The translations under genes and the position numbers were made by a program. A model generated the notes under the pieces. The model did no database searches and was not told where the DNA came from. It saw only the letters and a program-made list of their open reading frames with translations. From contig CAIQOJ010000110.1 in the NCBI GenBank assembly GCA_903873395.1, positions 1 to 64,000 on the forward strand: a stretch of 64,000 nt of DNA. The letters are read 5' to 3'. Shown here one piece after another: positions 4,019-20,047 of the stretch. The first letter of the stretch is position 1; each line of letters begins with the position of its first letter. Source of the stretch: an uncultured Acidimicrobiaceae bacterium (GTDB taxonomy: Bacteria > Actinomycetota > Acidimicrobiia > Acidimicrobiales > RAAP-2).

Positions 4019-4034
4019 TGGGCACTCCGGTCGT

Positions 4035-4502: not shown

Positions 4503-4530
4503 GACGTCCCACCTCGCTGCCGAACTCATC

Positions 4531-4563: not shown

Positions 4564-4672
4564 TACAAGTTGCGCATGGCGCTTCCTACGTTGTCGTTGG
4601 CCTCTGGGGCCGTTGGAATTTCGGTAGAGATTCGCGCTTCAGTTCTGATCGGAATCTGCCGATGCCGTTGTC

Positions 4673-5317: not shown

Positions 5318-5622
5318 TCGGTACCGTTCTCAGAGCAACGGGCGTGCGGCTGGCGATGACGTTCGGGCACTCCGCACTCTTCTTGCATCTGGGCTGACAG
5401 GCTCCTCGACGATCATCTTGCGAGATTCCGGGCATTGCCCACATCGTCCATAGCCCCACGCCGGCAGTGATTACCGCTCGCTGAGCGGATTGCTTCTGTC
5501 CTGCACCCGTAGTGGTGGTGACTTCGTCAACGGAGTGACTTTGTGCCCTGGTTAGGGGCGCGACGGACGTGATCACCATGGAACGAGGGTGCTGGCGCGC
5601 CCACGGACGATGGAGACGCACG
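5318..5622. other. Intergenic region between pilin 1 and pilin 2
   Basis: About 305 bases with no supported gene. A short hairpin (5474-5479 pairing with 5483-5488, 3-base loop) is the only structure noted. A separate promoter for pilin 2 probably lies here, but no convincing -35/-10 pair was found. A good Shine-Dalgarno GGAG at 5612-5615 precedes the chosen pilin 2 start. Confidence 0.5.
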
Positions 5623-6219
5623 ATGACAGAGCGAAACCGCCGAGATGGCGTGATGGACCGGATGCAGGCCAGGGCGAACACGAGTCACCTCGATGAAGGT
5701 TTTACGTTGATCGAGTTGATGGTGGTGCTGTTGATCTTGGCCATCCTGCTGGCCATCGCCATTCCCACCTTCCTCGGCGTGACGCAGTCAGCCAATGATC
5801 GTGCGGCACAGTCGAACCTCCATACGGCGTGGGTGAATGCCGACTCGATCTTTCAAGCCAACGCACAGTCCTTCCCAGCGGCCTCGACGCTGGCCGCATC
5901 GTTGACCGTGGCCGAGCCGGCACTGTCCTTCGTCAGCGGGACCGTCAATACGAGCTCGAACACACCCCAGACCTCAGTGGGCGTGGCCGTCTCCAACGAT
6001 GGGCAGGCCGTCATGTTGGCCGAGATGGCCAAGGGCACGGGAACGTGCTGGTATCAGGCAGACATCGAGATCGCTCAAACTGGCGTGACGGGAGTCGCTA
6101 CGGCCACCACGGCTGCTGGTGCTTGGTACGGCAAACAGACCGGTCAGTCGAGCTGCACTCCCGGGTTTGCCGGCGGCCTGACCGACGTCACCTGGCAGCA
6201 GAACGGCTTCCCTGGCTGA
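5623..6219 (+). CDS. Type IV prepilin 2
   Basis: A 198-residue prepilin. The ATG at 5623 is chosen because GGAG lies eight bases upstream; a longer frame from 5569 lacks such a site. The leader of 26 residues ends in DEG, followed by FTLIELMVVLLILAILLAIA. The body is very similar to pilin 3: both share blocks such as VMLAEMAKGT, the Cys-Trp pair, WYGKQTGQS, CTPGFAGGL and the terminal WQQNGFPG. The two body cysteines would close a C-terminal loop. It is followed after 31 bases by a polytopic membrane protein (6251), an arrangement repeated for pilin 3. Confidence 0.93.
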   Translation: MTERNRRDGVMDRMQARANTSHLDEGFTLIELMVVLLILAILLAIAIPTFLGVTQSANDRAAQSNLHTAWVNADSIFQANAQSFPAASTLAASLTVAEPALSFVSGTVNTSSNTPQTSVGVAVSNDGQAVMLAEMAKGTGTCWYQADIEIAQTGVTGVATATTAAGAWYGKQTGQSSCTPGFAGGLTDVTWQQNGFPG

Positions 6220-6250
6220 TCGTCGGAATCCTGGGTGGGCCATCGCCACC

Positions 6251-7696
6251 ATGAGGCATGACATCATCAGGATGGTGGTCAACTCCGACGACGAGGCTGT
6301 CGATGTGACGCCCATGGCCCCCGTGACCATCTCATCGGCATCGGCCGAAGTGGAGCGGCCATGTGTTGGAGCGGCTCGACCGGAAACCGGTGCAGGCGGG
6401 CAGGACGGCGAAGGAACCGCGGCGCAACGGCCTAGCAGCCATGTGGCGAGTTGGCTGTCTCGCCGGAGATGGCCGATCGCCACCACGGTGATGATGCTGG
6501 GTGTCGGGATCGCCTACCTCCTCTTCTTTGGTGCTGTCGTTCACCATCGACCCATCTGGACGACCGGGGGTGACCTGTGGGGAATCACCCAAGCGGCGCA
6601 AGCCGTGGCTCGTGGCAGGTTCGGAGGGGTCTATGACAGTGGGACCTTCGTCCTCTCGGTGCCCGGAATGGAGGTGCTCCTCGCTCCGGTGGCCAAGGTG
6701 GTCGCCTGGGCCAATTTCACCGCCAACGTCGGGCCCTACCGGTACGACCATCCCACTGCCGCACTGTTGCTGGTGCCCGTCGAGATTCTCGCGGCATCGA
6801 CGGCGGTCTTTGCCGGAGACGCCTTGGCTGAGCGATGGAAGGTGGGAACGGGCCGAAGAGTGGGGCTGTGCCTGGTCATAGGGGCCGTCGCATGGCCTGT
6901 GGCCGTTGTGTGGGGTCACGCCGAGGACTGCTTGTCCGTGGCTATCGCCATCTATGCCCTAATGGCGGTCCTCGACGCCCGGTGGGTCCAGGCTGGCTGG
7001 CTGCTCGGGTTCGCCATTGCCGTCCAGCCATTGGTCGGACTACTCGTTCCGCTTCTGGTCGGTGCTGCCCCGGGTGGACGTCGAGTGGGATTCGTACTTC
7101 GATCGGCTGCCCTGTCGGTGGCTCTCGTGTCCATGGCGCTTATCGATGACACCTCGGCCACCCTGCATGCTGTGCTGCAGCAACCCGCGCCGATCGAGCT
7201 CAATCATGGAACTCCGTGGGCGGCACTCTCGCCCGTTGTGGCCCACACCAGCATCGTGGTCGATGGCGTGCGGCGCCACCTCACGATTGTGGCTGGCGGC
7301 CCAGCCCGGTTGATCTATCTCGCGTTGGCGGTGCTGGTCGGCGTGGTGGTCTGGAGGCGGCCGCAGACTTCGGTCCGCTTGGTGTGGCTTGCCGGCTTAG
7401 TTCTTGTCGGACGCTGCTTCTTCGAGGCCGTGATGACGCCCTACTACCTGGCGCCTCCGCTCATCCTTTGTCTGGTCCTGGCCGCGCGGCACTCCACGCG
7501 TCGATTCATTTCCGCCGTGATCCTCGCACTCGCGGTCACCGTCTTTGCCTACTTCCACCTTGGGTCCTGGGTCTGGTGGCTCTGCGTGGTTGCGTCGATG
7601 GCAACCATTGTCGTGCTCGCCTACCCCTTGTCTGACGTGTCGCCAACGCATGAGCGAGATGGTGGTCGCCATGTCACCCGAGCAATGGTTCCCTGA
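6251..7696 (+). CDS. Polytopic membrane protein, GT-C glycosyltransferase-like, pilin-associated copy 1
   Basis: A 481-residue protein with a hydrophilic N-terminus of about 75 residues, then about ten hydrophobic segments. It is a close paralogue of the protein at 8729. Shared blocks include TGGDLWGI in the first large loop, PGMEVLLAPVA, WGHAEDCL, a VQPLV..LVPL stretch, VVVWRRPQT and FFE.VMTPYYLAPPL. An early acidic loop motif on a many-pass protein fits the general GT-C fold, which uses lipid-linked sugars. I do not recognise a specific family. The start could also be the ATG at 6272; neither has a clear ribosome site. Its position right after a pilin suggests pilin modification, for example glycosylation; that is inference. 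Confidence 0.7.
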   Translation: MRHDIIRMVVNSDDEAVDVTPMAPVTISSASAEVERPCVGAARPETGAGGQDGEGTAAQRPSSHVASWLSRRRWPIATTVMMLGVGIAYLLFFGAVVHHRPIWTTGGDLWGITQAAQAVARGRFGGVYDSGTFVLSVPGMEVLLAPVAKVVAWANFTANVGPYRYDHPTAALLLVPVEILAASTAVFAGDALAERWKVGTGRRVGLCLVIGAVAWPVAVVWGHAEDCLSVAIAIYALMAVLDARWVQAGWLLGFAIAVQPLVGLLVPLLVGAAPGGRRVGFVLRSAALSVALVSMALIDDTSATLHAVLQQPAPIELNHGTPWAALSPVVAHTSIVVDGVRRHLTIVAGGPARLIYLALAVLVGVVVWRRPQTSVRLVWLAGLVLVGRCFFEAVMTPYYLAPPLILCLVLAARHSTRRFISAVILALAVTVFAYFHLGSWVWWLCVVASMATIVVLAYPLSDVSPTHERDGGRHVTRAMVP

Positions 7697-8034
7697 ACAG
7701 GTGACGGACGGTCGCCAAATGAGTGCGGTGCGTGTTGGCAACCCTTTGGAACCCGTTCCGCACCATGGTCGCGACCAAAAACCGGATTCTCTCGGGGATA
7801 CTTGATGGCGACGGGCAGATGGTCGCGGTGTACTCAGATGTCGGGAATTCTCGGCATCGATGACAGTGCTGAGGAGTGCAGTGCGCCTCGGGCCGCAAGC
7901 GATGCCAGTCACTCGTCTCGGCGGACGGTGCACGAGAGTTGATACTCAAGGTCGCTGGCCAATAGGACGAAGGTAGTACTGGTCGGCCTGTAGCCGTCCA
8001 TCCATTGATGCATCAATACAACCAAGGAGCACAC
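7697..8034. other. Long leader region upstream of pilin 3
   Basis: About 340 bases with no supported gene. It separates the first pilin/membrane-protein pair from the second. It ends in a 14-base perfect palindrome (8004-8017) and a strong ribosome site AAGGAG (8024-8029) in front of pilin 3. A promoter is expected here. TTGATA near 7938 could be a -35 element, but the match is weak. Confidence 0.5.
8004..8017. promoter_or_regulatory. 14-base perfect palindrome before pilin 3, possible operator
   Basis: ATTGATGCATCAAT is a perfect inverted repeat ending six bases before the AAGGAG ribosome site of pilin 3. AT-rich palindromes of this size in GC-rich DNA are often dimeric regulator sites, and its position would also let it affect translation. 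No equivalent was seen before pilins 1 or 2. Confidence 0.4.
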
Positions 8035-8625
8035 ATGCTGAACTCCCTCATCACCCGGCTGAACGACCGGCGAGATGCGGCGATGGACCACGGCGAGGAC
8101 GCCGGATTCACGCTCATCGAGCTCATGGTCGTCCTGCTCATCCTGGCCATTCTTCTGGCGATCGCCATCCCGACCTTTCTCGGGGTGACCAAGTCGGCGA
8201 ACGACCGGGCTGCGCAGTCCAACCTGAACACGGCAATCACCAATGCCAAGTCCGTCTTCCAGACGAACTCGCAGTCATATCCGACGGCCACGGCACTGGC
8301 CGCGTCGCTGACCACGGCTGAGCCGTCCTTGTCCTTTGCGGCAGGTGCGGTCAACCAGACGTCGAATGCCAACAATGCCACCGTCGGCATCGCTGTGTCG
8401 GCTACCGGTCAGAGCGTCATGCTGGCAGAGATGGCCAAGGGCACCAGCACCTGCTGGTTCGTTGCTGACCTGGCTTCCGCTGAGAACGGCGTCACTGGTG
8501 CGGCCACCGCATCGTCGGCCGCCGGTACCTGGTACGGCAAGCAGACCGGCCAGAGCGTCTGCACCCCCGGCTTCGCCGGTGGTCTCTCGGGTGCCACCTG
8601 GCAGCAGAACGGTTTCCCTGGCTGA
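8035..8625 (+). CDS. pilA: Type IV prepilin 3, probable major pilin
   Basis: A 196-residue prepilin starting at ATG 8035, five bases after a strong AAGGAG. The leader of 24 residues ends in EDAG, then FTLIELMVVLLILAILLAIA with Glu5. The body closely matches pilin 2 through the C-terminal disulphide-loop region and the WQQNGFPG end. It has the best ribosome site of the three pilins and is followed by a strong terminator (8676-8709), so most transcripts should end after it. For these reasons it is the likeliest major subunit. The name pilA is used in the generic sense. Confidence 0.92.
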   Translation: MLNSLITRLNDRRDAAMDHGEDAGFTLIELMVVLLILAILLAIAIPTFLGVTKSANDRAAQSNLNTAITNAKSVFQTNSQSYPTATALAASLTTAEPSLSFAAGAVNQTSNANNATVGIAVSATGQSVMLAEMAKGTSTCWFVADLASAENGVTGAATASSAAGTWYGKQTGQSVCTPGFAGGLSGATWQQNGFPG

Positions 8626-8728: not shown

Positions 8729-10204
8729 ATGCACGTAGTGGTCAACTCCATCCCTGGTAATGCCGATGGTCTTCCCATGACGGTCACTTCGAGCGAGGTC
8801 GAATCCGACGCGCCCATCAACGTCCTCACCGATGCCCCCTGTGCATCGCCCGAGGATGCACCCGTCGATGGACTACCTCACCACGGTGGTCCGCCGGCTT
8901 GGCGCACGTGGATGGCCCGGAGGCGCTGGCCCATCATCACGACGGCGGCCATGTTGGTGGTCGGGATGGCCTATCTGCTGTTCTTCAACACCCTGGTCCA
9001 CCATCAGCCCACCTGGGCCACGGGTGGCGACCTGTGGGGGATCTTCCGTGCGGCCCACTACATCGGCTGGGGATCGTTGGGCGGGGTCTATACCGATGGC
9101 AACGGGGTCGTTGCCCTTCCCGGCATGGAGGTCCTTCTGGCCCCGGTGGCGATGTTGTCGGGCTCCTTGGGCTTGGGTGAGACCTACGGACCCTTTGTGG
9201 CCGCTCACCCCGGGGCGGCACTCCTGCTCATGCCAGCCGAGCTGCTTGCCGCATCGACCGTGGTCTTCGCCTGTGATTCGCTGGCTGAGCGACTCGCCGT
9301 CGTTCGACGGCATCGGATATGGCTGTGTGCGACCGTCGGCATCGTGGCGCTGGCGGCGACGTCCATCTGGGGCCATGCAGAGGACTGTTTGGCCGTCACC
9401 TTTGCCCTCTATGCCATCAAGGCAGCACTAGATGACCGTTGGACCACCGTGGGCTGGCTGATGGGCTTCGGGTTCGCCGTCCAGCCTCTGGTGGCACTTC
9501 TCGTTCCCCTGATGGTGGGTGCCGCCCCGGCAGTCCGACGATTGGGAGTTGTTGTGCGTGCCGCAGCACTGCCGGGCGCCCTGGCCGTCATCGCATTCTT
9601 GGGTGATGCTCAAGATGCCTATCGGGCGCTGGTCCAACAGCCGACACCTCCATCCATCAATCACGCCACCCCCTGGGTGGCGCTCTCCCCGGTCATCACG
9701 CCGTCTGGGACCGTGCACGTCCATGGTGTGCGGCTGCTTCCCCACACGTCCAACTATGTAACGGCGGTGATCGGCGGGACGGCCGAGCGAGTGGCGCAGG
9801 TGGCTGGCGGTCCGGGTCGTCTGATCTATATCGCCTTGGCCGTGCTGGTGGGCGTGGTGGTCTGGCGTCGCCCGCAGACCCCGGCTCGTCTGGTGTGGCT
9901 CGCCGGCCTGGTTCTGGCTGGACGCTGCTTCTTCGAGCCCGTCATGACGCCCTACTACCTGGCGCCACCGCTCTTCCTCTGTCTGGTGCTGGCTGCACGC
10001 CAATCCGGACGTCGGTTCGCTGCGGCCGTGATCTTGGCCCTTGAGGTCACCGTGTTCGCGTATCACCACCTGAACCCATGGGTCTGGTGGCTTCCCGTTG
10101 TCGCCTCAATGGCGACCATCCTGGCGCTTGGCTACCCCACGCCTGAACCGTCGGAATCAGGCAGACCATCCGAACCTGTCGCCTTGGTCTCGCCTGCATC
10201 CTGA
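8729..10204 (+). CDS. Polytopic membrane protein, GT-C glycosyltransferase-like, pilin-associated copy 2
   Basis: A 491-residue paralogue of the protein at 6251 with the same layout: a soluble N-terminus of about 75 residues, a first membrane segment beginning after RRRWP, and then many hydrophobic segments. Identical or near-identical blocks include TGGDLWGI, PGMEVLLAPVA, WGHAEDCL and FFEPVMTPYYLAPPL. Relative to copy 1 it has about 20 extra residues in the loop before AGGPGRLIY. The ATG at 8729 is chosen because an upstream TTG lies inside the terminator hairpin. A role in modifying pilin 3 is inferred from the repeated gene order. Its 3' end overlaps the convergent gene at 10132 by 73 bases. 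Confidence 0.7.
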   Translation: MHVVVNSIPGNADGLPMTVTSSEVESDAPINVLTDAPCASPEDAPVDGLPHHGGPPAWRTWMARRRWPIITTAAMLVVGMAYLLFFNTLVHHQPTWATGGDLWGIFRAAHYIGWGSLGGVYTDGNGVVALPGMEVLLAPVAMLSGSLGLGETYGPFVAAHPGAALLLMPAELLAASTVVFACDSLAERLAVVRRHRIWLCATVGIVALAATSIWGHAEDCLAVTFALYAIKAALDDRWTTVGWLMGFGFAVQPLVALLVPLMVGAAPAVRRLGVVVRAAALPGALAVIAFLGDAQDAYRALVQQPTPPSINHATPWVALSPVITPSGTVHVHGVRLLPHTSNYVTAVIGGTAERVAQVAGGPGRLIYIALAVLVGVVVWRRPQTPARLVWLAGLVLAGRCFFEPVMTPYYLAPPLFLCLVLAARQSGRRFAAAVILALEVTVFAYHHLNPWVWWLPVVASMATILALGYPTPEPSESGRPSEPVALVSPAS

Positions 10205-11226
10205 GAAGGACCAATCGCATCGGGAGCGCTAGTTCTGTCGTCGGACTGCTGGGTCTGGATGCCAGGTTGCGAACCGGTGGTCGGCCCAGTGGATTCACCG
10301 CTGGCGCCTTCCTCGTTCGCCACGGGGAGTGACACGTCGGCCTTCGCCTCCGGAGTTCGGCTGTCGGTGGCATCTCTGTGGCGGTCGACACGCTCGAACT
10401 GGCGTTCCACGTCGGCCCACACCAGAGGGTCTTCGGGTCCGAGGTCGTCGTCCGAATCCGGTGATCGATAGAGGATGACCGCGGCGGCGACCAGCAGAGT
10501 CAGCAGGAAGGAGAGTTTGGAGATGAAGCCCGCCACCTGCTGATCGTTCAGCGGTCGCAGTCCGACGACCTGGGTCGAGCCAGCAAAAGCTGGGTAGAGA
10601 GGGTGGACGGCCAAGATGAAGATGAAGGACAAAAAGACCGGTACGACGGCTTGGGCGACGAGGTAGATCATGCGGATCATCGGTTTGGGCCGGGGGATTC
10701 CCGGCACTCGCCCGATCACCGGTAACCACAGGATCAGCCCGGCGGTAATCGCTACAAGATCAAAGACGCCTCGGGCTATGAGTGACGAGGACTGAGCGGC
10801 AACCAGGGGAGGAGCCATGGGGACAACGACGAGCGCAGTGACGCAGATCACGGCGATAGGCGGCCTGCTCACCCGCAGGAGCGCAGAGTCGACCAACGCT
10901 GGGCGACTGAGGGCGCGCACCACATCGAAGGGAAGACCGGCCAGCAGCATTGGCGCGACCGCGAGGATCAAGAGGCTGCGCTGGAGTACGAGGGCGCACA
11001 GCGACCAGTGAGCCGCCAGATCAGCGATAGGCCAGGTCAGGGCAAGCGCAGCAGAGGCGATGCTCATGGCGAACTTGATGCGCTCGGCCCGTGACCAGGG
11101 GACCGGATGGGCCGCGGAGCGCAGTGCCCTGCGGTGGGCGCCAGCCACCGCACCCACGATGGCAACCAGGATCAGCCACGTAGCGAGGTGTGGTTGCCAC
11201 GCCCATGCCTGAGCAGTTGCGGTCAT
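10132..11226 (-). CDS. CtaG-like cytochrome c oxidase assembly protein
   Basis: A polytopic protein of the Caa3_CtaG type, linked to assembly of caa3 cytochrome oxidase. About seven hydrophobic segments are visible. Typical features are LAAHWSLCALVLQRSLLILA followed by a PMLLAGLP turn, and later PVFLSFIFILAVHPLYPAFA. After the last membrane segment a hydrophilic tail of about 110 residues (Asp/Ser/Thr-rich) is unusually long for the family. The start is taken as the ATG at 11226, nine bases inside a TTG. Its 3' end overlaps the 3' end of the second pilin-associated membrane gene. No oxidase subunit gene lies in the window. Confidence 0.75.
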   Translation of the reverse strand: MTATAQAWAWQPHLATWLILVAIVGAVAGAHRRALRSAAHPVPWSRAERIKFAMSIASAALALTWPIADLAAHWSLCALVLQRSLLILAVAPMLLAGLPFDVVRALSRPALVDSALLRVSRPPIAVICVTALVVVPMAPPLVAAQSSSLIARGVFDLVAITAGLILWLPVIGRVPGIPRPKPMIRMIYLVAQAVVPVFLSFIFILAVHPLYPAFAGSTQVVGLRPLNDQQVAGFISKLSFLLTLLVAAAVILYRSPDSDDDLGPEDPLVWADVERQFERVDRHRDATDSRTPEAKADVSLPVANEEGASGESTGPTTGSQPGIQTQQSDDRTSAPDAIGPSQDAGETKATGSDGLPDSDGSGVG

Positions 11227-11264
11227 GGTAGGCAACTCGTCGTATCAGGCATAGATTGGCGCTG

Positions 11265-12224
11265 ATGCCTTCTGCAAACCCGGTCGAACGGGTGACCAAC
11301 CTGCTTCTCGTACTTCTCGACACGCCGCGGCCGCTCAGTTTGCGCGAACTCACTGAGCAGGTGCCCGGCTATCCCGATGTGGGGACCGAGGCCGCCCGTC
11401 AGTGCTTCTCCCGGGACAAGGCGATGCTCTTGTCTCAGGGTGTGCCGGTGGAGACTCTCGACATCGACAGCGACGAGCAGAAGGGGTACCGGGTCGATCC
11501 CGAGAAGTACTACCTGCCCGACCTCGGACTCGAGCCCGACGAGCAGGCTGCACTCAATCTGGCCGTCGCTGCTGTCCACTTGGGTGAGCCTACCGGGCAC
11601 CATGCGTTGGCCAAGTTGGGAGTCGACGCCGGACGACCGTCCAACGCCGCTGCCAAAGCCGTCGTGGGCCTGGCCCCAATGGGAGACGTGCCTGCGCTTC
11701 CCGAGCTCTTCGACACCATCCGCAACAAGGCGACAGCGACGTTTACTTACAAGAGCGAGAAGCGATCCGTCGATGTTGCCGCCATCCGATTTCATGGCGG
11801 CTATTGGTATGCCATCGGCTGGGATCGCAACCGTGATGCGCCCAGGACCTTCCGGGTCGACCGCATCACCTCAAAGGTGGGTGCCGGTGCCAACGGGTCG
11901 GCTCAGGTCCCCGAGGACTTCGACCCCGTGGACGCCTTTGCCGGTGAACCGTGGGCATTCGGTGAAGGCGAGCGCGTTGAGGTGGACGTGGCTGTAGATG
12001 CTGCGGAAGCCACCCGGGTGACCACCGAGTTGGGTCCGGACGCGGTGACCGAAGCGGCGGAGAACGGAGACATCGTGGTGCGTATGGAGGTCACTGATGT
12101 CGAGGCCCTGATCTCCTGGGTGCTCGGATTCCTTGACCATGCCGAAGTACTCCGCCCGCCGGAAGTGCGTCACGCGATGATCGCCCGACTGGAGGCCTTT
12201 GCTACGTCTGGGGGTGCGACATGA
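11265..12224 (+). CDS. pafB: WYL-domain transcriptional regulator, PafB-like
   Basis: A 319-residue protein with an N-terminal winged helix (about residues 5-70, with LSLRELTEQVPGY) and a WYL domain in the second half (RSVDVAAIRFHGGYWYAIGWD, then TFRVDRI). In mycobacteria PafB and PafC form a heterodimer that activates most DNA-damage genes independently of LexA. The ATG at 11265 is chosen over a TTG nine bases upstream. It overlaps the next WYL gene by four bases (ATGA), the usual pafB-pafC arrangement. The Pup-proteasome genes that often lie upstream in other actinobacteria are absent; the neighbour is CtaG instead. Confidence 0.85.
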   Translation: MPSANPVERVTNLLLVLLDTPRPLSLRELTEQVPGYPDVGTEAARQCFSRDKAMLLSQGVPVETLDIDSDEQKGYRVDPEKYYLPDLGLEPDEQAALNLAVAAVHLGEPTGHHALAKLGVDAGRPSNAAAKAVVGLAPMGDVPALPELFDTIRNKATATFTYKSEKRSVDVAAIRFHGGYWYAIGWDRNRDAPRTFRVDRITSKVGAGANGSAQVPEDFDPVDAFAGEPWAFGEGERVEVDVAVDAAEATRVTTELGPDAVTEAAENGDIVVRMEVTDVEALISWVLGFLDHAEVLRPPEVRHAMIARLEAFATSGGAT

Positions 12225-13183
12225 GTCCGATGCCCACGCCCACGCCCGATCGGCTGCGCCGACTCCTCTCCATGCTCAACTGGCTTGCTCAGGAGGGAGA
12301 TGCCTCGATCGATGAGATGGCGGCTCGCTTCGACCTGACTCCGAGCGAGTTGGTAAGTGAGCTCGAAATGGCCGCTTGTTGCGGTGTTCCCCCCTACAGC
12401 CCCGACCAACTCCTGGAGATCATGGTCACCGATGAGGGCGTAGTTGGTCGGCTCGGTCGCTCTCACGCTCGGCCACGCCGGATGAACTCGAGTGAGGGTT
12501 TTGCCCTTGCTGCAGCGTGTAGAGCTCTGCTGGCTGTGCCGGGAAGCGACCCCAACGGTGCACTCTCTCGTGCGCTGGTGAAGTTGGACCGAGCGCTCGG
12601 TGACGTCAAGGTCACCATCGACCTCGATGCCCCTGATCACCTCGGCCTACTTCGAGAGGCGCTATCGACCCATCGCAAGGTCCGCATCGCCTACTACTCG
12701 GCGGCCGCCAACGAGATGTCCGAGCGGACCGTCGTCCCACATCGCATCTTCACATCCGAGGGCCACTGGTATCTCGACGGTTGGTGTGAGGACGTCGGCG
12801 ACACCCGCCGATTCCGTCTCGACCGCATGGCCACCGCAGTTCTGGCAGCGGCCTTCGACACCTCCGATCCAACGGCATCGCCTGGCGATGGGGGAGCGGG
12901 CGATGAGGTGCCGGTGCAGGCGTTCGTGCCAGGGCCCGACACCCGCACGGTCACCATCGCCGCAGACCCAGCGACCGAGTGGCTCTTCGAGACCATTCCT
13001 GCCGCCACTCAGGTCGGCGAGGACGGTGATCGCCGGGTATGGGAGGTCCACGTGGGCGGAGATGCCTGGCTGGAACGCCTGCTCCTCCGTCTCGGCCCAG
13101 CCAGTGCCGTGGTGGAACCAGCTGAGGATGCTTCATTGGCGACAAAGGCGGCAACGGCGATTTTGGACCGCTACCGCACCTGA
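12221..13183 (+). CDS. pafC: WYL-domain transcriptional regulator, PafC-like
   Basis: A 320-residue partner of the preceding gene. It has an N-terminal helix-turn-helix region (RLRRLLSMLNWLAQEGDASI, then EMAARFDLTPSELVSELEM) and a WYL core with VRIAYYSAAANEMSERTVVP, then GHWYLDGWCEDVGDTRRFRLDR. In the known PafBC system the WYL domains sense single-stranded DNA and switch on the DNA-damage response. The tight ATGA overlap with pafB implies equal production of both subunits. The tatA/tatC genes that follow pafC in mycobacteria are not here. The downstream region instead holds the mobilisation genes. Confidence 0.85.
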   Translation: MSPMPTPTPDRLRRLLSMLNWLAQEGDASIDEMAARFDLTPSELVSELEMAACCGVPPYSPDQLLEIMVTDEGVVGRLGRSHARPRRMNSSEGFALAAACRALLAVPGSDPNGALSRALVKLDRALGDVKVTIDLDAPDHLGLLREALSTHRKVRIAYYSAAANEMSERTVVPHRIFTSEGHWYLDGWCEDVGDTRRFRLDRMATAVLAAAFDTSDPTASPGDGGAGDEVPVQAFVPGPDTRTVTIAADPATEWLFETIPAATQVGEDGDRRVWEVHVGGDAWLERLLLRLGPASAVVEPAEDASLATKAATAILDRYRT

Positions 13184-13210
13184 TCCACCGGCCCGCCCTC
13201 GCCATAGTTG

Positions 13211-13258
13211 TGCCTGGCGACAGTGATGCCTGGCGATAGTGATGCCTGGCGGATTTGA
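13211..13258. repeat. Three 16-base direct repeats upstream of the relaxase gene
   Basis: Consecutive copies start at 13211, 13227 and 13243. The first two differ at one base (TGCCTGGCGACAGTGA and TGCCTGGCGATAGTGA) and the third diverges in its second half. They lie in the 207-base gap between pafC and the relaxase gene. Repeats of this kind can be iterons or part of a transfer origin, but no nick-site consensus was recognised. Confidence 0.7.
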
Positions 13259-13390
13259 TGGCGGGACCACCACGAAGCGAACTCCCCCTGTTGCTGCAGG
13301 AGTTTGCCGTGGCACACTGGGCAAGCACTCGCAGGACACCTCGGTCCGGCCATTGTCGGGGGAGCGCACTCCCCGTGGCCGAGGGAGGCA

Positions 13391-14632
13391 GTGTTGTTGC
13401 GAGCGCAGGTGGTCCGCGCCGAGCGGGCCGACTACTACGTCCATGATCTCCGGCCCGATGGGGTCGGTCGGCCGGCGGGAGAGTCGGCGGGTCTCTGGTG
13501 GGGCCAGGGGAGTGTCCGCCTCGGCCTCCGCGGCGAACCGGAGAGGGATGCGCTCGCCGCCGTCTTGAGTGGCCTCGACCCGCTGGGCGACCGTCCCTTG
13601 CGAGCCAATCGGGGGGAGCGAGCCGCAGGAGGCGTCGACCTGGTGTGGTGTGCCCCGAAATCTGTCAGCGTGCTCCACCTTCTTGGGCCTCCCGAGTTAG
13701 GGACAGCGACCGAAGATGCCCATCGGGCTGCCGTGGCCGAGGCGGCCGCCTATCTCGAGCGTGAAGCCATCGGTGTGAGGAGAACGACTGGTGGCATCGT
13801 GCGTCATCTTCCAGGGCAAGGTGCAGTGGCTGCAGCGTTCCTCCATCGCACGAGCCGAGCTCTCGATCCTCATCTGCACACGCACCTGGTCGTGGCAAAC
13901 GTGGCACAAGGCCCGGATGGTCTGTGGTCGGCGGTGGACACTCGACGACTGTTCGCTCACGTCCGTGCCGCATCCGCCCTCTACGACGGCCACCTTCGTC
14001 ATGAGATGACGCAACGGGCGAGTATCGGATGGGAACGGCGGAGTTCGGGTCGATGGGAGATCGACGGCATCGATCCAGTGCTGTGTCGCACCTTCTCGCA
14101 GCGTGCGGCGTCAATGGACGAGCATCTCCATCGGATGCCTGTCGCTCGATCAGCCCGGGGCACCATCCGTGCCGCATTCCATTCGGACCGACCCGACAAA
14201 GATGCCCGGGTGGCGATGGACGAACTGCGTTACTCGTGGCGCAAGCGTGCGGACGACCTCGGCATAGATCTCACCAACATGGTTGAAGTCATCGGTCGGG
14301 CTCATCGGCACCCAACGGATGCCGATGTTCAGGGTGACCTCTCCTCCGACGTCGCCGAACACAACGGCGTCTCATTGCCGGCGACCAAGCGGCGACTGTT
14401 GGCAACGGTGGCCGACGAGGCGCGCCAGGGTCTTCCTGTCCACCTTGTCGAGGAGCGAGTCGCCATGGCGGTCGGTGTGAGCCCACGTGGCATCGAGCGC
14501 ATGGCTGGAGGTGGGCGGGATATCGGCCGGTATGTGATGCCCGAGTCGGCCCGTACCCAGGTCGGCCTCGATCCGTTCAGTTCCCTGTCGCGACGTGACC
14601 AGAGGTTGGGACGTGAGGTCGGGGGTCGATGA
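13391..14632 (+). CDS. MobF/TrwC-family relaxase domain protein without helicase
   Basis: A 413-residue protein matching the TrwC relaxase domain, which nicks DNA at a transfer origin and becomes covalently attached through tyrosine. Visible family features are the N-terminal tyrosine pair in ADYYVHD (residues 15-16), VDLVWCAPKSVSVLHLL, and the metal-binding histidines in DPHLHTHLVV (161, 163, 165) followed by GLWSAVDTRRLF. Full MobF proteins add a C-terminal SF1 helicase of 600 residues or more; it is missing here. A start at GTG 13391 (or TTG 13394) places the tyrosines at the family position and follows GGGAGG. It converges on a coupling-protein gene. Confidence 0.87.
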   Translation: MLLRAQVVRAERADYYVHDLRPDGVGRPAGESAGLWWGQGSVRLGLRGEPERDALAAVLSGLDPLGDRPLRANRGERAAGGVDLVWCAPKSVSVLHLLGPPELGTATEDAHRAAVAEAAAYLEREAIGVRRTTGGIVRHLPGQGAVAAAFLHRTSRALDPHLHTHLVVANVAQGPDGLWSAVDTRRLFAHVRAASALYDGHLRHEMTQRASIGWERRSSGRWEIDGIDPVLCRTFSQRAASMDEHLHRMPVARSARGTIRAAFHSDRPDKDARVAMDELRYSWRKRADDLGIDLTNMVEVIGRAHRHPTDADVQGDLSSDVAEHNGVSLPATKRRLLATVADEARQGLPVHLVEERVAMAVGVSPRGIERMAGGGRDIGRYVMPESARTQVGLDPFSSLSRRDQRLGREVGGR

Positions 14633-14684
14633 CAGATCTGGCCGTCGAGTCCAGGCGCACGGCGATGATCGGATGTCGCGGCTT

Positions 14685-16142
14685 CTAGCGCACGAGATCG
14701 TTTCCTGTGGCGTCGCGAGAGATGGCGTGTCGTCCCAGGCGGCGCGCGTTGCCGAGGGTCTGCAGGGATCGCCACGGCTCATGTCGATGCGCAGGTGTCA
14801 GGGGAATCCACGTCGCCTCGTTGAGGTGATCGAAGGACAACCCATGGCCTGGATGCCCGTGGGCGATGAGGTCGGGAGGCACCCGGCGCCGCCAGATGCT
14901 GCTCAACTGCTCGCCGGATTGGGCATGTCTGCGGCCCAGAAGGTGGGCCAGTGGATCATCAGAGAACGACAGACCGACCGAGGTCGAACGGGTCCGCAGC
15001 TCTTCTTCGCCGGCCACGATCGACAACGCCTCGAGTGTGCGTGTGTCGCCGATGCCGGGAAGAACGACGGTGGTCCCAAAGAGCGAAGGAAATCCGTCGG
15101 CCTGGGTCGGCCAACGGTGACGAGCTTGGGACAGGTCTTGGAAGCAGGCAAGTGTCACCAGGCCCTGGCCACCCCCCTCGCTGATCATGGAAGGGAGGTC
15201 GGGCAAGGGAGCGATGTTGGCCAGCTCGTCGAGGGCAAGGAGCACGGGCGCTGCAGACCTCGACCTCGTGGACGCCGACCACTGGTACGTGGCGTGGCGC
15301 ACATCGTCGAGGAGCCCCACCACCAGAGGGGCCACCAGCGCTTGATGGTGGGCGGGAGCGGCGATGTAGAGCGCATCGGACGACGACACGAAGGCATCGA
15401 CGTCGAAGTCGGGTTGGCACGTGGCCTCAAGCGCCTCGGCTGAACGGAAGCCACCCAACGCGCCTGATGTGGTGGACCAGATGCCGCTGAGCTCGCGTTC
15501 ATCCGTCGTGGTGATGCCATCGAGCAGGTGGCGGGCCACAGGGTCGGAGCCGGTCGGTTCAGTGGCCAGGATCTGTTGGGCGGGTAGGGCTTGATGGCGG
15601 TCGACCCAGGTCAACACCGTGCGCATATCGGCGCCCTCCAGCGCGGCGGCATGCAGCAGTGGGGCCAACAGTGCCTGGGCCCGTTCATGCCAGTGGTCGC
15701 CGGCTCCGCTCGCCGAGGCGCCAGCGAGCACCAAGGCACGAGCCGTCGACTGAGCGGCGCGCCACGACGTGCACCGCTGGAGAGGTGACCATCGAACTCG
15801 GTGGACACCGGGGCGGTCGGCGACAGATGCCGTCGGGTCAAAGAGGTGGACGGTGCCGAGTTCCTGGCGGGCGGCGCGGGTGGCATCGAGTACGTCGGGT
15901 TTTGTCGAAGTGGTCACCACTGCGCCATTGGCGGCAAGCACGTTGGGAATGATGAACGAGGACGTCTTGCCCGATCTCGGCGGACCGAGAATCATCACGG
16001 ACTGCTCGGCACCGGCCTGACGCCACCCTTGCGCATCTTGTCCGAGGTAGATGCCATGGGCACCGTTGGCCGAAGTGCGTTGCGCTTGGGTCAGTGCACC
16101 CGCGTGTCGATGCCGCACATTCTCGTCATCGTGTTCCGTCAT
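14685..16142 (-). CDS. VirD4/TraG-type coupling protein (type IV secretion ATPase)
   Basis: A 485-residue ATPase of the VirD4/TraG family, which hands relaxase-bound DNA to a conjugation channel. The Walker A loop GPPRSGKT is at residues 53-60, followed by SSFIIPNVL. The Walker B stretch is VLLALDELANIAPLPDLP, followed by a conserved TLACFQDLSQ segment. There is no obvious N-terminal membrane anchor, so it resembles soluble TraG/TraM-recognition members. The ATG at 16142 is used. It faces the relaxase gene tail to tail with a 52-base gap. No other type IV secretion genes are present, so the pair is a mobilisation module or a relic. Confidence 0.88.
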   Translation of the reverse strand: MTEHDDENVRHRHAGALTQAQRTSANGAHGIYLGQDAQGWRQAGAEQSVMILGPPRSGKTSSFIIPNVLAANGAVVTTSTKPDVLDATRAARQELGTVHLFDPTASVADRPGVHRVRWSPLQRCTSWRAAQSTARALVLAGASASGAGDHWHERAQALLAPLLHAAALEGADMRTVLTWVDRHQALPAQQILATEPTGSDPVARHLLDGITTTDERELSGIWSTTSGALGGFRSAEALEATCQPDFDVDAFVSSSDALYIAAPAHHQALVAPLVVGLLDDVRHATYQWSASTRSRSAAPVLLALDELANIAPLPDLPSMISEGGGQGLVTLACFQDLSQARHRWPTQADGFPSLFGTTVVLPGIGDTRTLEALSIVAGEEELRTRSTSVGLSFSDDPLAHLLGRRHAQSGEQLSSIWRRRVPPDLIAHGHPGHGLSFDHLNEATWIPLTPAHRHEPWRSLQTLGNARRLGRHAISRDATGNDLVR

Positions 16143-16430
16143 GTGGCACAACCTTTTCGACGCGGCGCACTGCGCACGGAGCGGTGGCGAACATGAGGTT
16201 CAGCGAGAGACTCTGCCTAGGTCGAGTCCAAATAATCGTTGCAAACAAACGGGTTTTTGTCCATGACCGACATTCGGAGGCCACAGCGACGTGTCTCAGC
16301 GTAGGTCAGTGTTGGTGTCGGCCTTACGTCCGAGCTGACGCGAAGAACGCGCTGACGAGTAGTGATGCTTGACCTGGCGCGCAATGTCCATTTGGCTAGG
16401 CGTCGGTTACGTATCGCTGAGGAGATCACG

Positions 16431-17126
16431 GTGAACAGATCTCAACTCGTCCAGTCGGTGTCCGACAGCACGGTTGTGCCAAGGAAGATCGTCGAAGACG
16501 TGGTGAGTTCTGTGTTTGCCACCGTGATCGCCGAGGTTCGGTCTGGGCGGAAAGTGACGGTCGCTGGGTTCGGTGCATTCACCCCAACGGCTCGAGCTTC
16601 TCGGGTGGGCCGCAATCCGCGGACTGGTGCAGTGGTACCGATCCCGGCGTCTATCGGTGTTCGGTTCTCCACCGGTTCGACGTTTAAGTCGGCATTGAAC
16701 CCCAAGGAGGAAGTACCTATGGCAGAGAAGAAGACAGCGGCCAAGAAGGCTCCGGCCAAGAAGGCAGCAGCAAAGAAGGCTCCGGCCACCAAGGTTGCAG
16801 CAAAGAAGGCCCCGGCTAAGAAGGCTGTTGCCAAGAAGGCTCCTGCCAAGAAGGCTCCGGCTAAGAAGGCTGTTGCCAAGAAGGCCCCAGCAAAGAAGGT
16901 CGTCGCCAAGAAGGCTCCGGCTAAGAAGGCCCCAGCAAAGAAGGTAGTCGCCAAGAAGGCTCCGGCCAAGAAGGCTGTTGCCAAGAAGGCCCCAGCAAAG
17001 AAGGTCGTCGCCAGGAAGGCTCCGGCCAAGAAGGCCCCAGCAAAGAAGGTCGTCGCCAAGAAGGCTCCGGCCAAGAAGGCTCCGGCCAAGAAGGCCCCGG
17101 CAAAGAAGGCAGCGGCTCGCCGCTGA
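16431..17126 (+). CDS. hupB: HU-family nucleoid protein with lysine/alanine-rich H1-like tail
   Basis: A 231-residue protein. Residues 1 to about 94 are an HU/IHF fold with [21 protein letters not shown], the DNA-binding arm. From residue 97 a low-complexity tail of about 135 residues repeats [16 protein letters not shown] and KKVVAKKA, like mycobacterial HupB/Hlp and eukaryotic H1. Such tails bind and compact DNA. The start is GTG at 16431, six bases after GGAG; an upstream frame to 16362 has no site. A strong internal ribosome site precedes an in-frame ATG at the HU/tail junction. The gene is followed by a UUCG-loop terminator. The 288 bases before it hold no supported gene. Confidence 0.92.
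16704..16721 (+). promoter_or_regulatory. Internal Shine-Dalgarno and ATG at the HU/tail boundary
   Basis: AAGGAGG at 16704-16710 lies eight bases before an in-frame ATG at 16719-16721. This is a better ribosome site than that of the full-length gene. Initiation here would make a free tail of about 135 residues beginning [10 protein letters not shown]. It may instead be coincidence within lysine/glutamate codons. Confidence 0.55.
16725..17123 (+). repeat. Coding repeats of the HU tail (15-base and longer units)
   Basis: The tail is built from tandem codon blocks such as AAGAAGGCTCCGGCC alternating with blocks encoding [10 protein letters not shown] and [10 protein letters not shown]. Large near-identical stretches recur (for example around 16870-16960 and 16985-17075). 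The number of units is probably variable between strains through slippage or recombination. Confidence 0.85.
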
Positions 17127-17171
17127 AGCGTTGCTCGGCGTGGCATGCCCACGCCACTGCGGTGTGACCAC

Positions 17172-17193
17172 GTGGGGGCCTTCGGGCCCCCAC
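17172..17193 (+). terminator. Intrinsic terminator after hupB
   Basis: A perfect 9-bp GC stem (17172-17180 with 17185-17193) is closed by a stable TTCG tetraloop. No T-run follows. It lies 45 bases after the hupB stop and between hupB and the convergent deacetylase gene. Confidence 0.75.
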
Positions 17194-17243
17194 TGTCGCG
17201 TCCGTGATTGTGGAACTGCGTGAGGCGTCAGATACCGGGCGAG

Positions 17244-18086
17244 TCAGATGTGATCTATGAGGTGAAAGGCTTCACCTGGGCCTTGGCCAGCAAGGCGCCC
17301 ATGTTGTTCGAGTTGCCATGCCACTTGCTCAGCGAACTCCTCGGCCCCGCTGAGGGCCGACTGACTGGCACCCTGTTCCTCGGTTGGTTCCGGAGGTTCG
17401 CCATCGATGCCCATCGTTGATTCGAGCTGGCTGTGGTGGCAGAGCAAGGCAGCAACCTTTGCTTGCGCATATCCGGCGGCACGTTCCACGTGATTGGCCA
17501 GATCAGGCTCCCACAGCAGTAGCGCAGAAGGGCGATGAGGGCTGGGACCGATGTCGTCAAAGAAATGCGGATCCCTGGCAGCGACAACAGCCCCGAGGGT
17601 GACGAAGCCTGCCGCTCGGTGATCGGGGTGGAGGCGGTAGCGGCGCCATGGATCGTGGCCCAGGATGACATTGGGGCGAATCTCTCGAATGACCCGCACG
17701 ACATCACGGCGCGTGGCTTCGTCATCGGTTAACTCACCGTCGATGCGACCGAGGAAGATGACGTCGTCGGGACGCTCTGCCGAGTCACCGTGGAGGACCC
17801 GTGCGGCAGTCCTGCACTCTGCTTGGCGGGCAGCAACAAGATCGGCAAGGTCGGTGTTGGGATCCCAGCTCCCCTTGGAACCGTCGGTGAGAACGAGGTG
17901 CACGATCCGGCAACCAGCCTCGGCCCATCGGGCCAAGGTGGCCCCAGCTCCGAACTCGATGTCGTCGGGATGAGCTCCGATGGCCAGAGCGGTCTCGGGC
18001 ACAGGAAGGTCGACCGTCACGGGTCCCGTCGTCAAGAGGTCGCCGACAGGAAGCCCTGATCGTGAGCGTTGCCCGGCTTCGGTCAT
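17244..18086 (-). CDS. PIG-L/LmbE-family zinc deacetylase
   Basis: A 280-residue protein of the PIG-L family, zinc enzymes that remove acetyl groups from N-acetylglucosamine-type conjugates (as MshB and Mca do in mycothiol metabolism). The zinc motif AHPDDIEFG is near residue 37 and a second motif HPDHRAAG lies near 153. The ATG overlaps the stop of cofC by four bases, so the two are co-transcribed. Which substrate it uses cannot be read from the sequence. Mycothiol or F420-side metabolism are possibilities, the latter only because of the neighbour. Confidence 0.85.
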   Translation of the reverse strand: MTEAGQRSRSGLPVGDLLTTGPVTVDLPVPETALAIGAHPDDIEFGAGATLARWAEAGCRIVHLVLTDGSKGSWDPNTDLADLVAARQAECRTAARVLHGDSAERPDDVIFLGRIDGELTDDEATRRDVVRVIREIRPNVILGHDPWRRYRLHPDHRAAGFVTLGAVVAARDPHFFDDIGPSPHRPSALLLWEPDLANHVERAAGYAQAKVAALLCHHSQLESTMGIDGEPPEPTEEQGASQSALSGAEEFAEQVAWQLEQHGRLAGQGPGEAFHLIDHI

Positions 18087-18706
18087 GGTTGACCGTCCGC
18101 GTGCAATGCGGCCACCGGGACCACGTCACCAGGCTCGTCGACGTCCCAGGCAAGGTCGGGCAGATCCAGAATGTGGATCGTGAGATCGAGCCTGGCTGCT
18201 TCGACTCTGTGGCGAGCAAACGATCCGGGGCCATACGAGAACCGGAAGCCGGTATCTGTGGGTAGGGCCATCACATTTGTCCCGTTGCCCCACCTGTCTG
18301 GCACCAGGGTCACGCCAACCCCTTGATCCACCTGCGCCAGGCCGGTCGCCCGGGGAAGGTCAGCATGGGAGACGACGACCCGCGTGACGCCCGCTTCTCG
18401 TAGGTGATCGATGCCGGCTTCGACGGCACCATTGAGGCCACGTCCGGGCTCCCAAATGACGAGGGCACCTCGCCGCCTGGCCCATTCGGCAACATCGCTG
18501 TCGTCGCAGACCACGGCCACGGGCAGAGGGGCTGAGGCATCGATCACCCGGTCGGCCATTGCCCGGGCCAAGTGGGCTCGCTCTTCAGGTCCGAGCGCAT
18601 CATGTAGTCGCCGCTTTGCTTCGTGAAAAGCCTTTACTGGGATGAGCACGGCTCGGGACCCCACGGCAAGATCCCCGGTCCATGTGTGAGTCCCAGGGTC
18701 ATCCAT
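18083..18706 (-). CDS. cofC: CofC/FbiD-type phospholactate (or phosphoenolpyruvate) guanylyltransferase
   Basis: A 207-residue nucleotidyltransferase that activates 2-phospholactate or phosphoenolpyruvate with GTP in coenzyme F420 synthesis. Supporting stretches are AVLIPVKAFHEAKRRL at the N-terminus, VVSHADLPRATGL, and GVTLVPDRWGNGTNVMALP followed by FRFSYGPGSFARH. These are characteristic of the family. The ATG at 18706 is chosen; the longer frame to 18865 overlaps the divergent cyclase start and contains no family sequence. No fbiA/fbiB genes are in the window. Presence of this gene implies F420 use, common in actinobacteria. Confidence 0.88.
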   Translation of the reverse strand: MDDPGTHTWTGDLAVGSRAVLIPVKAFHEAKRRLHDALGPEERAHLARAMADRVIDASAPLPVAVVCDDSDVAEWARRRGALVIWEPGRGLNGAVEAGIDHLREAGVTRVVVSHADLPRATGLAQVDQGVGVTLVPDRWGNGTNVMALPTDTGFRFSYGPGSFARHRVEAARLDLTIHILDLPDLAWDVDEPGDVVPVAALHADGQP

Positions 18707-18778
18707 GGCGACAGTGTAGGCAGGCAGTGCCCGATCGCTCCTGTGGGTGGGGAGGCCTAGGGTGGAGGCGTGGACAAG

Positions 18779-20047
18779 ATGACCCCTGCAGCCGGTTTGA
18801 CGTCCCCCCGCACTGCCGAGGAAGAGCACCTCCGGATCGAGGCACTTGCCCGGGTGCGAGCGCAACTTGTTGAGTTGGGCTGCTCGGACGCCGAAGTCGA
18901 CCAGGCCGTCGCCGACGAGGTCATCGATCTACTCATGGTCGATCGTGTTCTCGTGCCATCCGAACGCCTGTTGACCCTCGAAGGCGTGGCCGAGCGCACG
19001 GGCATGTCGGCCGAGGTCGTCCGCCGATTCTGGCGAGCGCTCGGCTTTTTGGATGTAGACGGCGCCGATGCTGCCTTCAGCGAGCTCGACGTCGAAGCAG
19101 TGCAGATCTTCCAAGCCATGGCCGACATGGGCATGGCCGATCTCGAAGTTGCCGTTCAGATGGCACGCGTCATCGGCACCTCGATGGCCCGTGTGGCTGA
19201 GGCCCAGACTGCACCCGGAACGACGCCGGTGCCTCAATCGACGGGTGATCCCGTGCTCGATGCCGACCGGTTCGCTCGCCAAGCCGACACCTACCTGCCG
19301 GCCATGGGGAGGATCCTCGAATACGTCTGGCGACGTCATCTCCAAGCCGCCACTCGTCGATCGGTGGCCCACAGGACCCATGCGGTCGACGAAGGCTTGC
19401 GTCCGGTGATGGCGGTGGGCTTTGCCGACATGGTCGGGTTCACGATGCTCAGCCAGCACCTAGGTGACGAAGAGTTGGCTGCCGTAGTGGCCCGTTTCGA
19501 AGAGCTTGCGCACGACACGGTCATCGCCTTGGGCGGCCGAGTCGTCAAGATGATCGGCGATGAGGTGATGTTCGTAGTGCCTTCGGCGACAGGTGGCGCT
19601 CAGATCGGCCTCAGCCTGGCCGAGGCCTATGCCGATGACGAACTCCTGTCCGACGTGCGTGTGGCTCTCGCCGTGGGCCCCGTACTCACACGGGAAGGCG
19701 ATTTCTACGGCCCGGTCGTCAACTTGGCCAGCCGCCTGGTTGGGGTGGCCAATCCCGGGACCGTCTTGGTGTCTGACGAGTTTCGCCAGGCATTGGAGGA
19801 AGAGGAAGCCGAGGGGATCGAGACCCGACCGCTTCGTACTCGCAATCTGAAAGATCTCGGCCGGGTCCAGATGTTCAAGCTGGTGCGGGCTGGCGTCGGA
19901 CCGGGAGCAGACAGCCATCGCAGCATCCGCTGGGAGCGACTCGGCGGCGTCTTGATGGACCTCGATGAACTCCGCCTACGTCAGATCGAAGACGGGGAAG
20001 CTGCCTCAGTCATCGAGGCGGATGGTGGCGATTCCGTGGGCGCGTAG
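18779..20047 (+). CDS. Class III adenylate/guanylate cyclase with N-terminal regulatory domain
   Basis: A 422-residue soluble cyclase. Residues 1 to about 190 form a helical domain resembling the autoinhibitory, pH-responsive region of mycobacterial Rv1264-type cyclases. The catalytic domain follows. All key residues are present: metal aspartates Asp217 (FADMVGFT) and Asp261 (MIGDEVMF), the purine-specifying Lys257, and the transition-state pair Asn315 and Arg319 (NLASRL). The lysine suggests ATP rather than GTP. It should therefore be active as a homodimer. The ATG at 18779 is preferred to a GTG nine bases upstream because GGAGG then has normal spacing. The 3' end overlaps the convergent mannosidase gene by 42 bases. 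Confidence 0.9.
   Translation: MTPAAGLTSPRTAEEEHLRIEALARVRAQLVELGCSDAEVDQAVADEVIDLLMVDRVLVPSERLLTLEGVAERTGMSAEVVRRFWRALGFLDVDGADAAFSELDVEAVQIFQAMADMGMADLEVAVQMARVIGTSMARVAEAQTAPGTTPVPQSTGDPVLDADRFARQADTYLPAMGRILEYVWRRHLQAATRRSVAHRTHAVDEGLRPVMAVGFADMVGFTMLSQHLGDEELAAVVARFEELAHDTVIALGGRVVKMIGDEVMFVVPSATGGAQIGLSLAEAYADDELLSDVRVALAVGPVLTREGDFYGPVVNLASRLVGVANPGTVLVSDEFRQALEEEEAEGIETRPLRTRNLKDLGRVQMFKLVRAGVGPGADSHRSIRWERLGGVLMDLDELRLRQIEDGEAASVIEADGGDSVGA

What the first reader, a model, noticed from the sequence alone, without database searches (positions are those of the whole stretch)
13184..16142. Minimal mobilisation module with only a relaxase and a coupling protein
A MobF relaxase domain lacking its helicase converges on a VirD4-type ATPase, with no other conjugation genes. 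The key tyrosines, histidines and Walker motifs look intact, so both may be active. Either this is a relic kept under selection or a two-component transfer or DNA-processing system that borrows other machinery.
Basis: partly seen in the sequence, partly recalled or inferred. Interest (0 to 1): 0.55.

Follow-up and report, generated by a model that had tools for sequence, protein, structure and literature searches.

The report
Split chromosomal DNA-transfer machine in Acidimicrobiales
The odd gene pair is not a leftover of a mobile element: it is half of a DNA-transfer machine that a large group of bacteria has kept built into its chromosome in two separate places, in a group that has lost the usual gene for taking up DNA from outside.

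Summary
A helicase-less MobF relaxase (window 13391-14632, 413 aa) converges on a membrane-anchor-less VirD4/TrwB ATPase (14685-16142), both intact. The reading as a 'minimal module' is not. The pair sits at one fixed chromosomal place (CtaG, PafB-PafC, relaxase> <VirD4, HU, PIG-L, CofC) across a whole family and beyond, under purifying selection, without mobile-element borders. Elsewhere on the chromosome the same genomes carry a compact T4SS operon (DUF6112, SCO6881, SCO6880, VirB4, VirD4), also at a fixed place (divergent from a SenX3-like kinase). Relaxase and T4SS divergence correlate (rho 0.88). Both loci carry the same direct-repeat promoter motif in about half of the genomes tested (absent from the window's own genome). 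In family f16 relaxase and T4SS are divergent neighbours sharing one copy. In the order, genomes with this system lack the DNA-uptake channel ComEC and relatives without it have ComEC, but this is probably one clade-level event. Best reading: a domesticated, vertically inherited, split DNA-export (conjugation-type) system. DNA transfer itself is inferred.

The parts
13391..14632 (+). Single-domain MobF (TrwC-fold) relaxase, 413 aa, GTG start; Y15/Y16 at 13433-13438, D83 at 13637, H152 at 13844, H163 at 13877, H165 at 13883
14685..16142 (-). Soluble VirD4/TrwB-type coupling ATPase, 485 aa, ATG start; Walker A lysine K59 at 15966-15968, Walker B D305-E306 near 15225-15230; no transmembrane segment
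11256..12224 (+). PafB-like WYL/WCX regulator, fixed upstream neighbour
12221..13183 (+). PafC-like WYL regulator (HTH_PafC), directly upstream of the relaxase; adjacency also kept in other families
13207..13252 (+). Three tandem copies, 16 nt apart, of (GT)GATGCCTGGCGA between PafC and the relaxase; possible regulator or oriT site, not conserved in relatives
   Evidence: function unproven
16362..17126 (+). HU with a lysine/alanine histone-H1-like tail (15-nt coding repeats); fixed flank of the locus, contigs often end here

Best explanation
The pair is the DNA-processing half of a domesticated, chromosome-encoded type IV DNA-export (conjugation-type) system that was split into two fixed chromosomal loci. 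Shown: an intact relaxase and an intact coupling-type ATPase, vertical inheritance at a fixed place, and purifying selection. Shown: a T4SS operon (DUF6112, SCO6881, SCO6880, VirB4, membrane-anchored VirD4) at a second fixed place, diverging in step with the relaxase. Shown for about half of the relatives tested: a promoter motif shared by the two loci, hence one regulon. Inferred: the relaxase nicks an unidentified chromosomal oriT through Y15 and stays on the 5' end. Inferred: the soluble ATPase delivers or feeds the relaxosome to the T4SS, and single-stranded chromosomal DNA is passed to neighbouring cells or released. Inferred: with the helicase domain lost, a host helicase unwinds the strand. 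The PafB-PafC neighbourhood suggests, but does not show, coupling to ssDNA or DNA damage.
For: Pair in 36 of 37 family genomes. PafB-PafC-relaxase-VirD4 order in 32 of 39 fetched pair loci. Catalytic residues kept. dN/dS 0.08-0.25 for the relaxase in 7 of 8 close pairs, 0.34 in the pair with decayed G006. T4SS beside SenX3 in 33 of 40 loci of the first batch, 14 of 20 of the second and 7 of 8 of the 'missing' genomes examined. VirB4 in 31 of 34 MAG genomes that carry the PafBC-linked relaxase. Distance correlations relaxase-VirB4 0.88 and relaxase-SCO6880 0.88, 0 of 1000 permutations as high. De novo motifs from the two loci agree. A matrix trained only on 26 T4SS promoters of other families has its best hit of the whole relaxase locus upstream of the relaxase in 17 of 33 genomes. 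The reverse test gives 37 of 52, 0.6 expected by length. Local dinucleotide shuffles: 13 of 33 with p<0.01 against 2 of 33 for the reversed matrix. In f16 the best site of the 20-kb locus lies in the divergent relaxase|T4SS gap in 3 of 3.
Against: No oriT was found and no DNA transfer was measured. The motif is missing upstream of the relaxase in 15 of 33 genomes (one more ranks second) and is missing at both loci in the window's own genome. Column-shuffled matrices also rank the site first in 8.4 of 33 on average and up to 15, and the reversed-matrix control also combined to a low p (4e-9), so part of the signal is AT-richness. VirD4 is absent next to the relaxase in some relatives (L166, L170, L175, L206), so the pair is not obligatory. 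T4SS not demonstrated in G006, G012 and G060.
Confidence: 0.62

Rival explanations
1. Domesticated for an internal task: the relaxase, soluble ATPase and membrane complex process or move chromosomal DNA inside the cell (damage response, segregation), without transfer between cells.
For: Fixed neighbourhood with PafB-PafC; mycobacterial PafBC is activated by ssDNA (PMC11804915, abstract). Streptomyces cmdABCDEF, whose genes resemble SCO6878/6880/6881, affects chromosome segregation and sporulation (PMC2782261, Discussion read).
Against: A complete envelope T4SS with a second, usually membrane-anchored VirD4 and a shared promoter motif are more than internal processing needs. The relaxase keeps all transesterase residues; the cmd paper passages read mention no relaxase. 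The relaxase has its own promoter motif between pafC and its start in many genomes, so it need not follow pafBC.
Confidence: 0.25
2. Relic of an integrated conjugative or mobilisable element in decay.
For: Homology to plasmid and ICE proteins; helicase domain lost; G006 shows a broken relaxase N-terminus and a split VirD4; C-terminal extensions without a recognisable helicase in relatives.
Against: Fixed place in more than 30 genomes, intact frames, dN/dS like neighbouring pafB and pafC. Mobile long-form relaxases form a separate group of 45 rows, SH-aLRT 97. No direct repeats flank the pair and GC is not unusual.
Confidence: 0.04
3. Autonomous two-component mobilisation module that borrows the transfer apparatus of passing plasmids or ICEs.
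For: In the window only two genes are present; a second, more distant VirB4 occurs in some of these genomes (G007, G011, G013, G018, G036).
Against: The host's own T4SS is nearly universal at a fixed locus, co-diverges with the relaxase and shares its promoter motif.
Confidence: 0.05
4. The T4SS now exports proteins; the relaxase acts only as a DNA-binding regulator.
For: Domesticated T4SSs often lose DNA transfer; most Patescibacteria T4SS clusters lack a relaxase (PMC12102498, passages).
Against: Here the relaxase is retained with catalytic Tyr and three His across families.
Confidence: 0.04

Closest known systems
MobF relaxases TrwC (R388) and TraI (F, pKM101, pCU1)
   Same: Fold, three-His metal site, catalytic Tyr pair, aspartate
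   Different: 413 aa, no helicase, one Tyr pair only, chromosomal and vertically inherited
TrwB/VirD4/Cagbeta coupling proteins
   Same: Walker motifs and fold
   Different: No membrane anchor; a second, usually membrane-anchored VirD4 sits in the T4SS operon
Gonococcal genetic island ssDNA-secreting T4SS (PMC8716806, search listing with start of abstract only)
   Same: Chromosomal T4SS plus relaxase thought to export chromosomal ssDNA
   Different: From general knowledge an acquired island in some strains; here two separate fixed loci across many families, single-domain relaxase
Patescibacteria chromosomal T4SS (PMC12102498, passages)
   Same: Clade-wide chromosomal monoderm-type T4SS
   Different: Most of those clusters lack a relaxase; here the relaxase is retained
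Streptomyces cmdABCDEF / SCO6878-6881 (PMC2782261)
   Same: SCO6880 and SCO6881-like membrane proteins plus a VirB4-like ATPase on the chromosome
   Different: No relaxase mentioned in the parts read; developmental phenotype

Membership tests
MobF (MOBF) relaxase | Score over the curated MobF model (NF041492, cut-off 100) | tested here: met
   198.1 bits
MobF (MOBF) relaxase | Catalytic Tyr, Asp and three His | tested here: met
   Y15, D83, H152, H163, H165; residue roles for TrwC are recalled
MobF (MOBF) relaxase | C-terminal SF1 helicase domain (usual, not part of the MobF model) | tested here: not met
   No helicase family hit in the window protein or in seven PafBC-linked relatives of 590-901 aa; an AAA_30 domain is present in G057 L071
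MobF (MOBF) relaxase | Nicks a cognate oriT | not testable with these tools
   No oriT identified
VirD4/TrwB coupling protein | T4SS-DNA_transf and TraG-D_C domains with Walker A and B | tested here: met
VirD4/TrwB coupling protein | N-terminal transmembrane anchor | tested here: not met
   No N-terminal hydrophobic segment in 40 homologues by a hydropathy window
Conjugative T4SS | VirB4, VirD4 and membrane channel subunits | tested here: met
   SCO6880 252 bits, VirB4-like P-loop, VirD4, SCO6881 (weak), DUF6112 at a second locus
Integrative conjugative or mobilisable element | Borders, integrase, variable chromosomal position | tested here: not met
   Fixed synteny; no flanking direct repeats in 9500-19500; integrase not searched separately
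Gonococcal-type ssDNA secretion system | Relaxase-dependent ssDNA release | not testable with these tools
   needs culture work
Natural transformation (ComEC) | ComEC in the genome | tested here: not met
   PF03772 absent in the own genome and in 37 of 37 family genomes

The most novel reading that the evidence does not exclude
One large clade of Acidimicrobiales gave up natural transformation (ComEC) and runs gene exchange through a permanently built-in chromosomal conjugation machine, split over two loci and wired into one regulon next to the ssDNA/DNA-damage regulator PafBC: conjugation as a core cellular function rather than a trait of mobile elements.
Probability: 0.33. Interest if true: 0.88.

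Novelty: new variant of a known kind. Interest (0 to 1): 0.72.

Why it matters
Conjugation genes are normally treated as parasites or passengers. Here relaxase, coupling ATPases and T4SS look like core genes: fixed position, purifying selection, recognisable even in lineages with genomes of only 1.4-2.5 Mb (genus g10), and mutually exclusive with the competence channel in this order. That makes 'can conjugation become a cell's own sex organ?' testable in a culturable organism (probably Acidimicrobium ferrooxidans). Guglielmini et al. 2011 called identifiable conjugative systems in actinobacteria surprisingly few (PMC3158045, passages); a split, clade-specific system like this could contribute to that.

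Tried and rejected
Tried: oriT search by inverted repeats and alignment upstream of the relaxase and between VirD4 and HU. No structure conserved across relatives. The window's 16-nt iterons are not at its T4SS locus beyond chance.

Tried: G006 as a natural experiment (broken relaxase plus missing T4SS). Its contig starts at SenX3, so absence of the T4SS cannot be shown. 'Missing' or partial T4SS in G001, G034, G390, G392, G413, G021 and G008 proved to be operon genes beside SenX3, mostly cut by contig ends.

Tried: class-wide co-occurrence. 32 of 345 genomes had no hit in any of the three searches and their kinship was not printed, so order members lacking everything may be hidden there.

Rejected: that the catalytic tyrosine pair is missing. 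The PF08751 match starts at position 16 and I first suspected this; the relatives' sequences show the pair. In one search the printed 'D' column is one position off and was not used; D83 is taken.

Rejected: VirD4 as an obligatory partner, since PafBC-relaxase occurs without it in several lineages.

Literature: searches found no description of this system in Acidimicrobiia; one returned one paper (sponge metagenome, listing only).

Full report
THE PAIR. Window 13391-14632 (+) encodes a single-domain MobF relaxase and 14685-16142 (-) a VirD4/TrwB-type ATPase; they converge with about 50 bases between. The relaxase has the TrwC fold (model pLDDT 81; TM 0.85 to TrwC-oriT structures by target length) and the catalytic set Y15, D83, H152, H163, H165. 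In an alignment of 37 rows the three His are invariant, Y15 is Tyr in all 35 rows with a residue there, and D83 is kept in 34. Only one Tyr pair is present and no helicase is detected. The ATPase has Walker A and B and the Cagbeta/TrwB fold but no membrane anchor.

FIXED PLACE. The own genome has one TrwC hit. Of 61 genomes (own plus 60 relatives) 51 have TrwC; in the own family (f1, 37 genomes, 21 genera) 36 have it and 36 have the VirD4 homologue, with G034 lacking both. In 39 fetched pair loci, 32 show the order PafB, PafC, relaxase> <VirD4 by tblastn, mostly with CtaG upstream and HU, PIG-L, CofC, cyclase and GH38 downstream. Of the other seven, L083 and L092 are cut by contig ends and L085 has an insertion; L079 proved to be PafBC-linked by profile; L071, L099 and L100 lack the context. 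A second, named collection (80 loci) extends PafB-PafC-relaxase to many Acidimicrobiales MAGs, some without VirD4. By coordinates PafC lies within about 1.1 kb of the relaxase on the same strand in 12 of 30 further genomes queried; in most of the rest the relaxase place was not printed, or it lies on another contig or beside the T4SS. In a tree of 118 relaxase domains, 45 long, non-PafBC relaxases form one group (SH-aLRT 97); PafBC-linked ones lie outside it. Relaxase dN/dS is 0.08-0.25 in seven close pairs and 0.34 in the pair involving decayed G006; PafB and PafC give 0.10-0.28. No direct repeats of 18 or more flank the locus within 9500-19500 other than the HU tail, GC is ordinary, and plasmid relatives are all below 60% identity, the eight listed at 27-35% (capped at 5000 records). 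It is therefore not a recent or decaying element.

THE OTHER HALF. A second VirD4 of the own genome led to a five-gene T4SS operon on another contig: DUF6112, an SCO6881-like multi-TM protein, SCO6880 (252 bits), a VirB4-like P-loop ATPase and VirD4. It lies divergent from a SenX3-like kinase. That arrangement recurs in 33 of 40 fetched loci, 14 of 20 loci of a further batch from other families and 7 of 8 genomes that seemed to lack part or all of it; in the eighth (G006) the contig ends at SenX3. VirB4 by search: 42 of 61 relatives and 31 of 34 MAG genomes with the PafBC-linked relaxase; the remaining three of the 34 (G390, G392, G413) have DUF6112 beside SenX3. In five order members without the pair (G042, G048, G049, G050, G058) the SenX3 relative has no T4SS gene beside it. 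A SenX3 tree puts 54 of 56 T4SS-linked rows on one side (SH-aLRT 92; G073 and G385 are long branches elsewhere), so fixation was probably a single event. A VirB4 tree sets most core rows apart from eight mobile, f16 or f52 rows (support 85; one f16 row falls among core rows). Pairwise distances of relaxase and VirB4 (rho 0.88), SCO6880 (0.88), PafC (0.89), VirD4 (0.86) and SenX3 (0.79) correlate; none of 1000 permutations reached these.

ONE REGULON. De novo motif search on 52 SenX3|DUF6112 gaps gave cAtGAAAaa.caTGAAA.a.cTTGAAA; on 33 relaxase upstream regions (G006, G025, G030 and G057 dropped as broken, truncated or long-form) it gave ..AAaAACATGAAAtg..ATGAAA. A matrix trained only on 26 non-f1 T4SS gaps has its best match in the whole relaxase locus inside the 170 bases upstream of the relaxase in 17 of 33 genomes (the window locus was scanned over its first 30 kb). 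Controls: column-shuffled matrices reach 8.4 on average and 15 at most (60 shuffles); the reversed matrix 10; the reverse complement 0. Composition thus explains part. Local dinucleotide shuffles: 13 of 33 at p<0.01 against 2 of 33 for the reversed matrix; combined p 6e-25 against 4e-9. A strict direct-repeat pattern is in 5 of 33 upstreams (shuffles 0.02 on average, 1 at most) and 11 of 52 gaps (0.07, 1 at most). Reverse test: 37 of 52. The motif tends to be present or absent at both loci together (5, 1, 4, 13; p 0.018, not corrected for kinship). In 2.84 Mb of loci, most off-target sites over 16 bits are in AT-rich loci. In family f16 relaxase and T4SS are divergent neighbours, and the best site of the 20-kb locus lies in their shared gap in 3 of 3. 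The window's own genome lacks the motif at both loci; it has 16-nt iterons upstream of the relaxase instead.

COMEC. PF03772 is absent in all 37 f1 genomes and in G044, G051, G056, G057 and G060, and present in the other 19 of the 61 relatives. The first 41 carry at least one half of the relaxase/T4SS system (T4SS unresolved in G006 and G012); G060 (80% complete) has neither. Of the 19 with ComEC, 6 have a VirB4 hit. ComEC is absent in all 34 MAG genomes. Class draw of 345: of 156 order genomes with printed kinship, 63 lack ComEC, of which 63 have a relaxase hit and 62 VirB4 (the other, G001, is cut by a contig end); 93 have ComEC, of which 27 have a relaxase hit and 16 VirB4. Another 32 genomes had no hit in any search and could not be placed. 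Outside the order, f52 has ComEC and a T4SS without SenX3 or a relaxase hit, so the exclusion is not a law. Because the carriers look like one clade, this is about one evolutionary event.

ORGANISMS. Carriers are mostly MAGs titled Acidimicrobiaceae or Acidimicrobiales. G073 is one contig of 2,158,157 bases, the length published for Acidimicrobium ferrooxidans ICP-T (PMC3035218, passages); the identification rests on that alone. It has the SenX3-linked T4SS and a relaxase hit and no ComEC.

READING. A conjugation-type DNA-export system has become a fixed part of the chromosome, split into a relaxase/soluble-ATPase locus and a channel locus. What is exported, where the oriT is, and whether PafBC (ssDNA-activated in mycobacteria; PMC11804915, abstract) controls it are not shown. 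The main rival is a purely internal DNA-processing role.

Noticed in passing
window 898-8625: Type IV pilus genes (T2SSE/MshEN ATPase 898-2493, pilin-like N_methyl proteins at 4673, 5569 and 8005) lie a few kb from the relaxase in a genome without ComEC; the pilin at 8005 recurs in several relatives' loci.
   Followed up: partly
window 3768-4454 (-): Short protein with a Cas12f1-like TNB domain (TnpB-type) inside the pilus region.
   Followed up: no
window 16362-17126: HU fused to a lysine/alanine histone-H1-like tail with 15-nt coding repeats; many relatives' contigs end within about 1 kb of it, probably an assembly effect.
   Followed up: partly
L325 (G068) and class family f52: T4SS of the same kind without SenX3, with no relaxase hit and with ComEC, in small genomes of another order.
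   Followed up: partly
L298 / L085 (G006): Only clearly decayed copy: insertion between pafC and relaxase, relaxase N-terminus with YY lost, VirD4 split.
   Followed up: partly
L166, L170, L175, L206: AT-rich or divergent relatives keep PafB-PafC-relaxase with intact active site but no VirD4 beside it.
   Followed up: partly
L061 18230-18310: In the window's genome the T4SS promoter lacks the CATGAAA repeats and holds CTGGCA-type repeats; the relaxase upstream holds CCTGGCG repeats. Possibly a switched regulator site; not tested.
   Followed up: no
L149, L192, L208, L209: MAGs titled Acidobacteriota, Chloroflexota or Alphaproteobacteria carry actinobacterial-type relaxases; probably mislabelled or misbinned contigs.
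   Followed up: no
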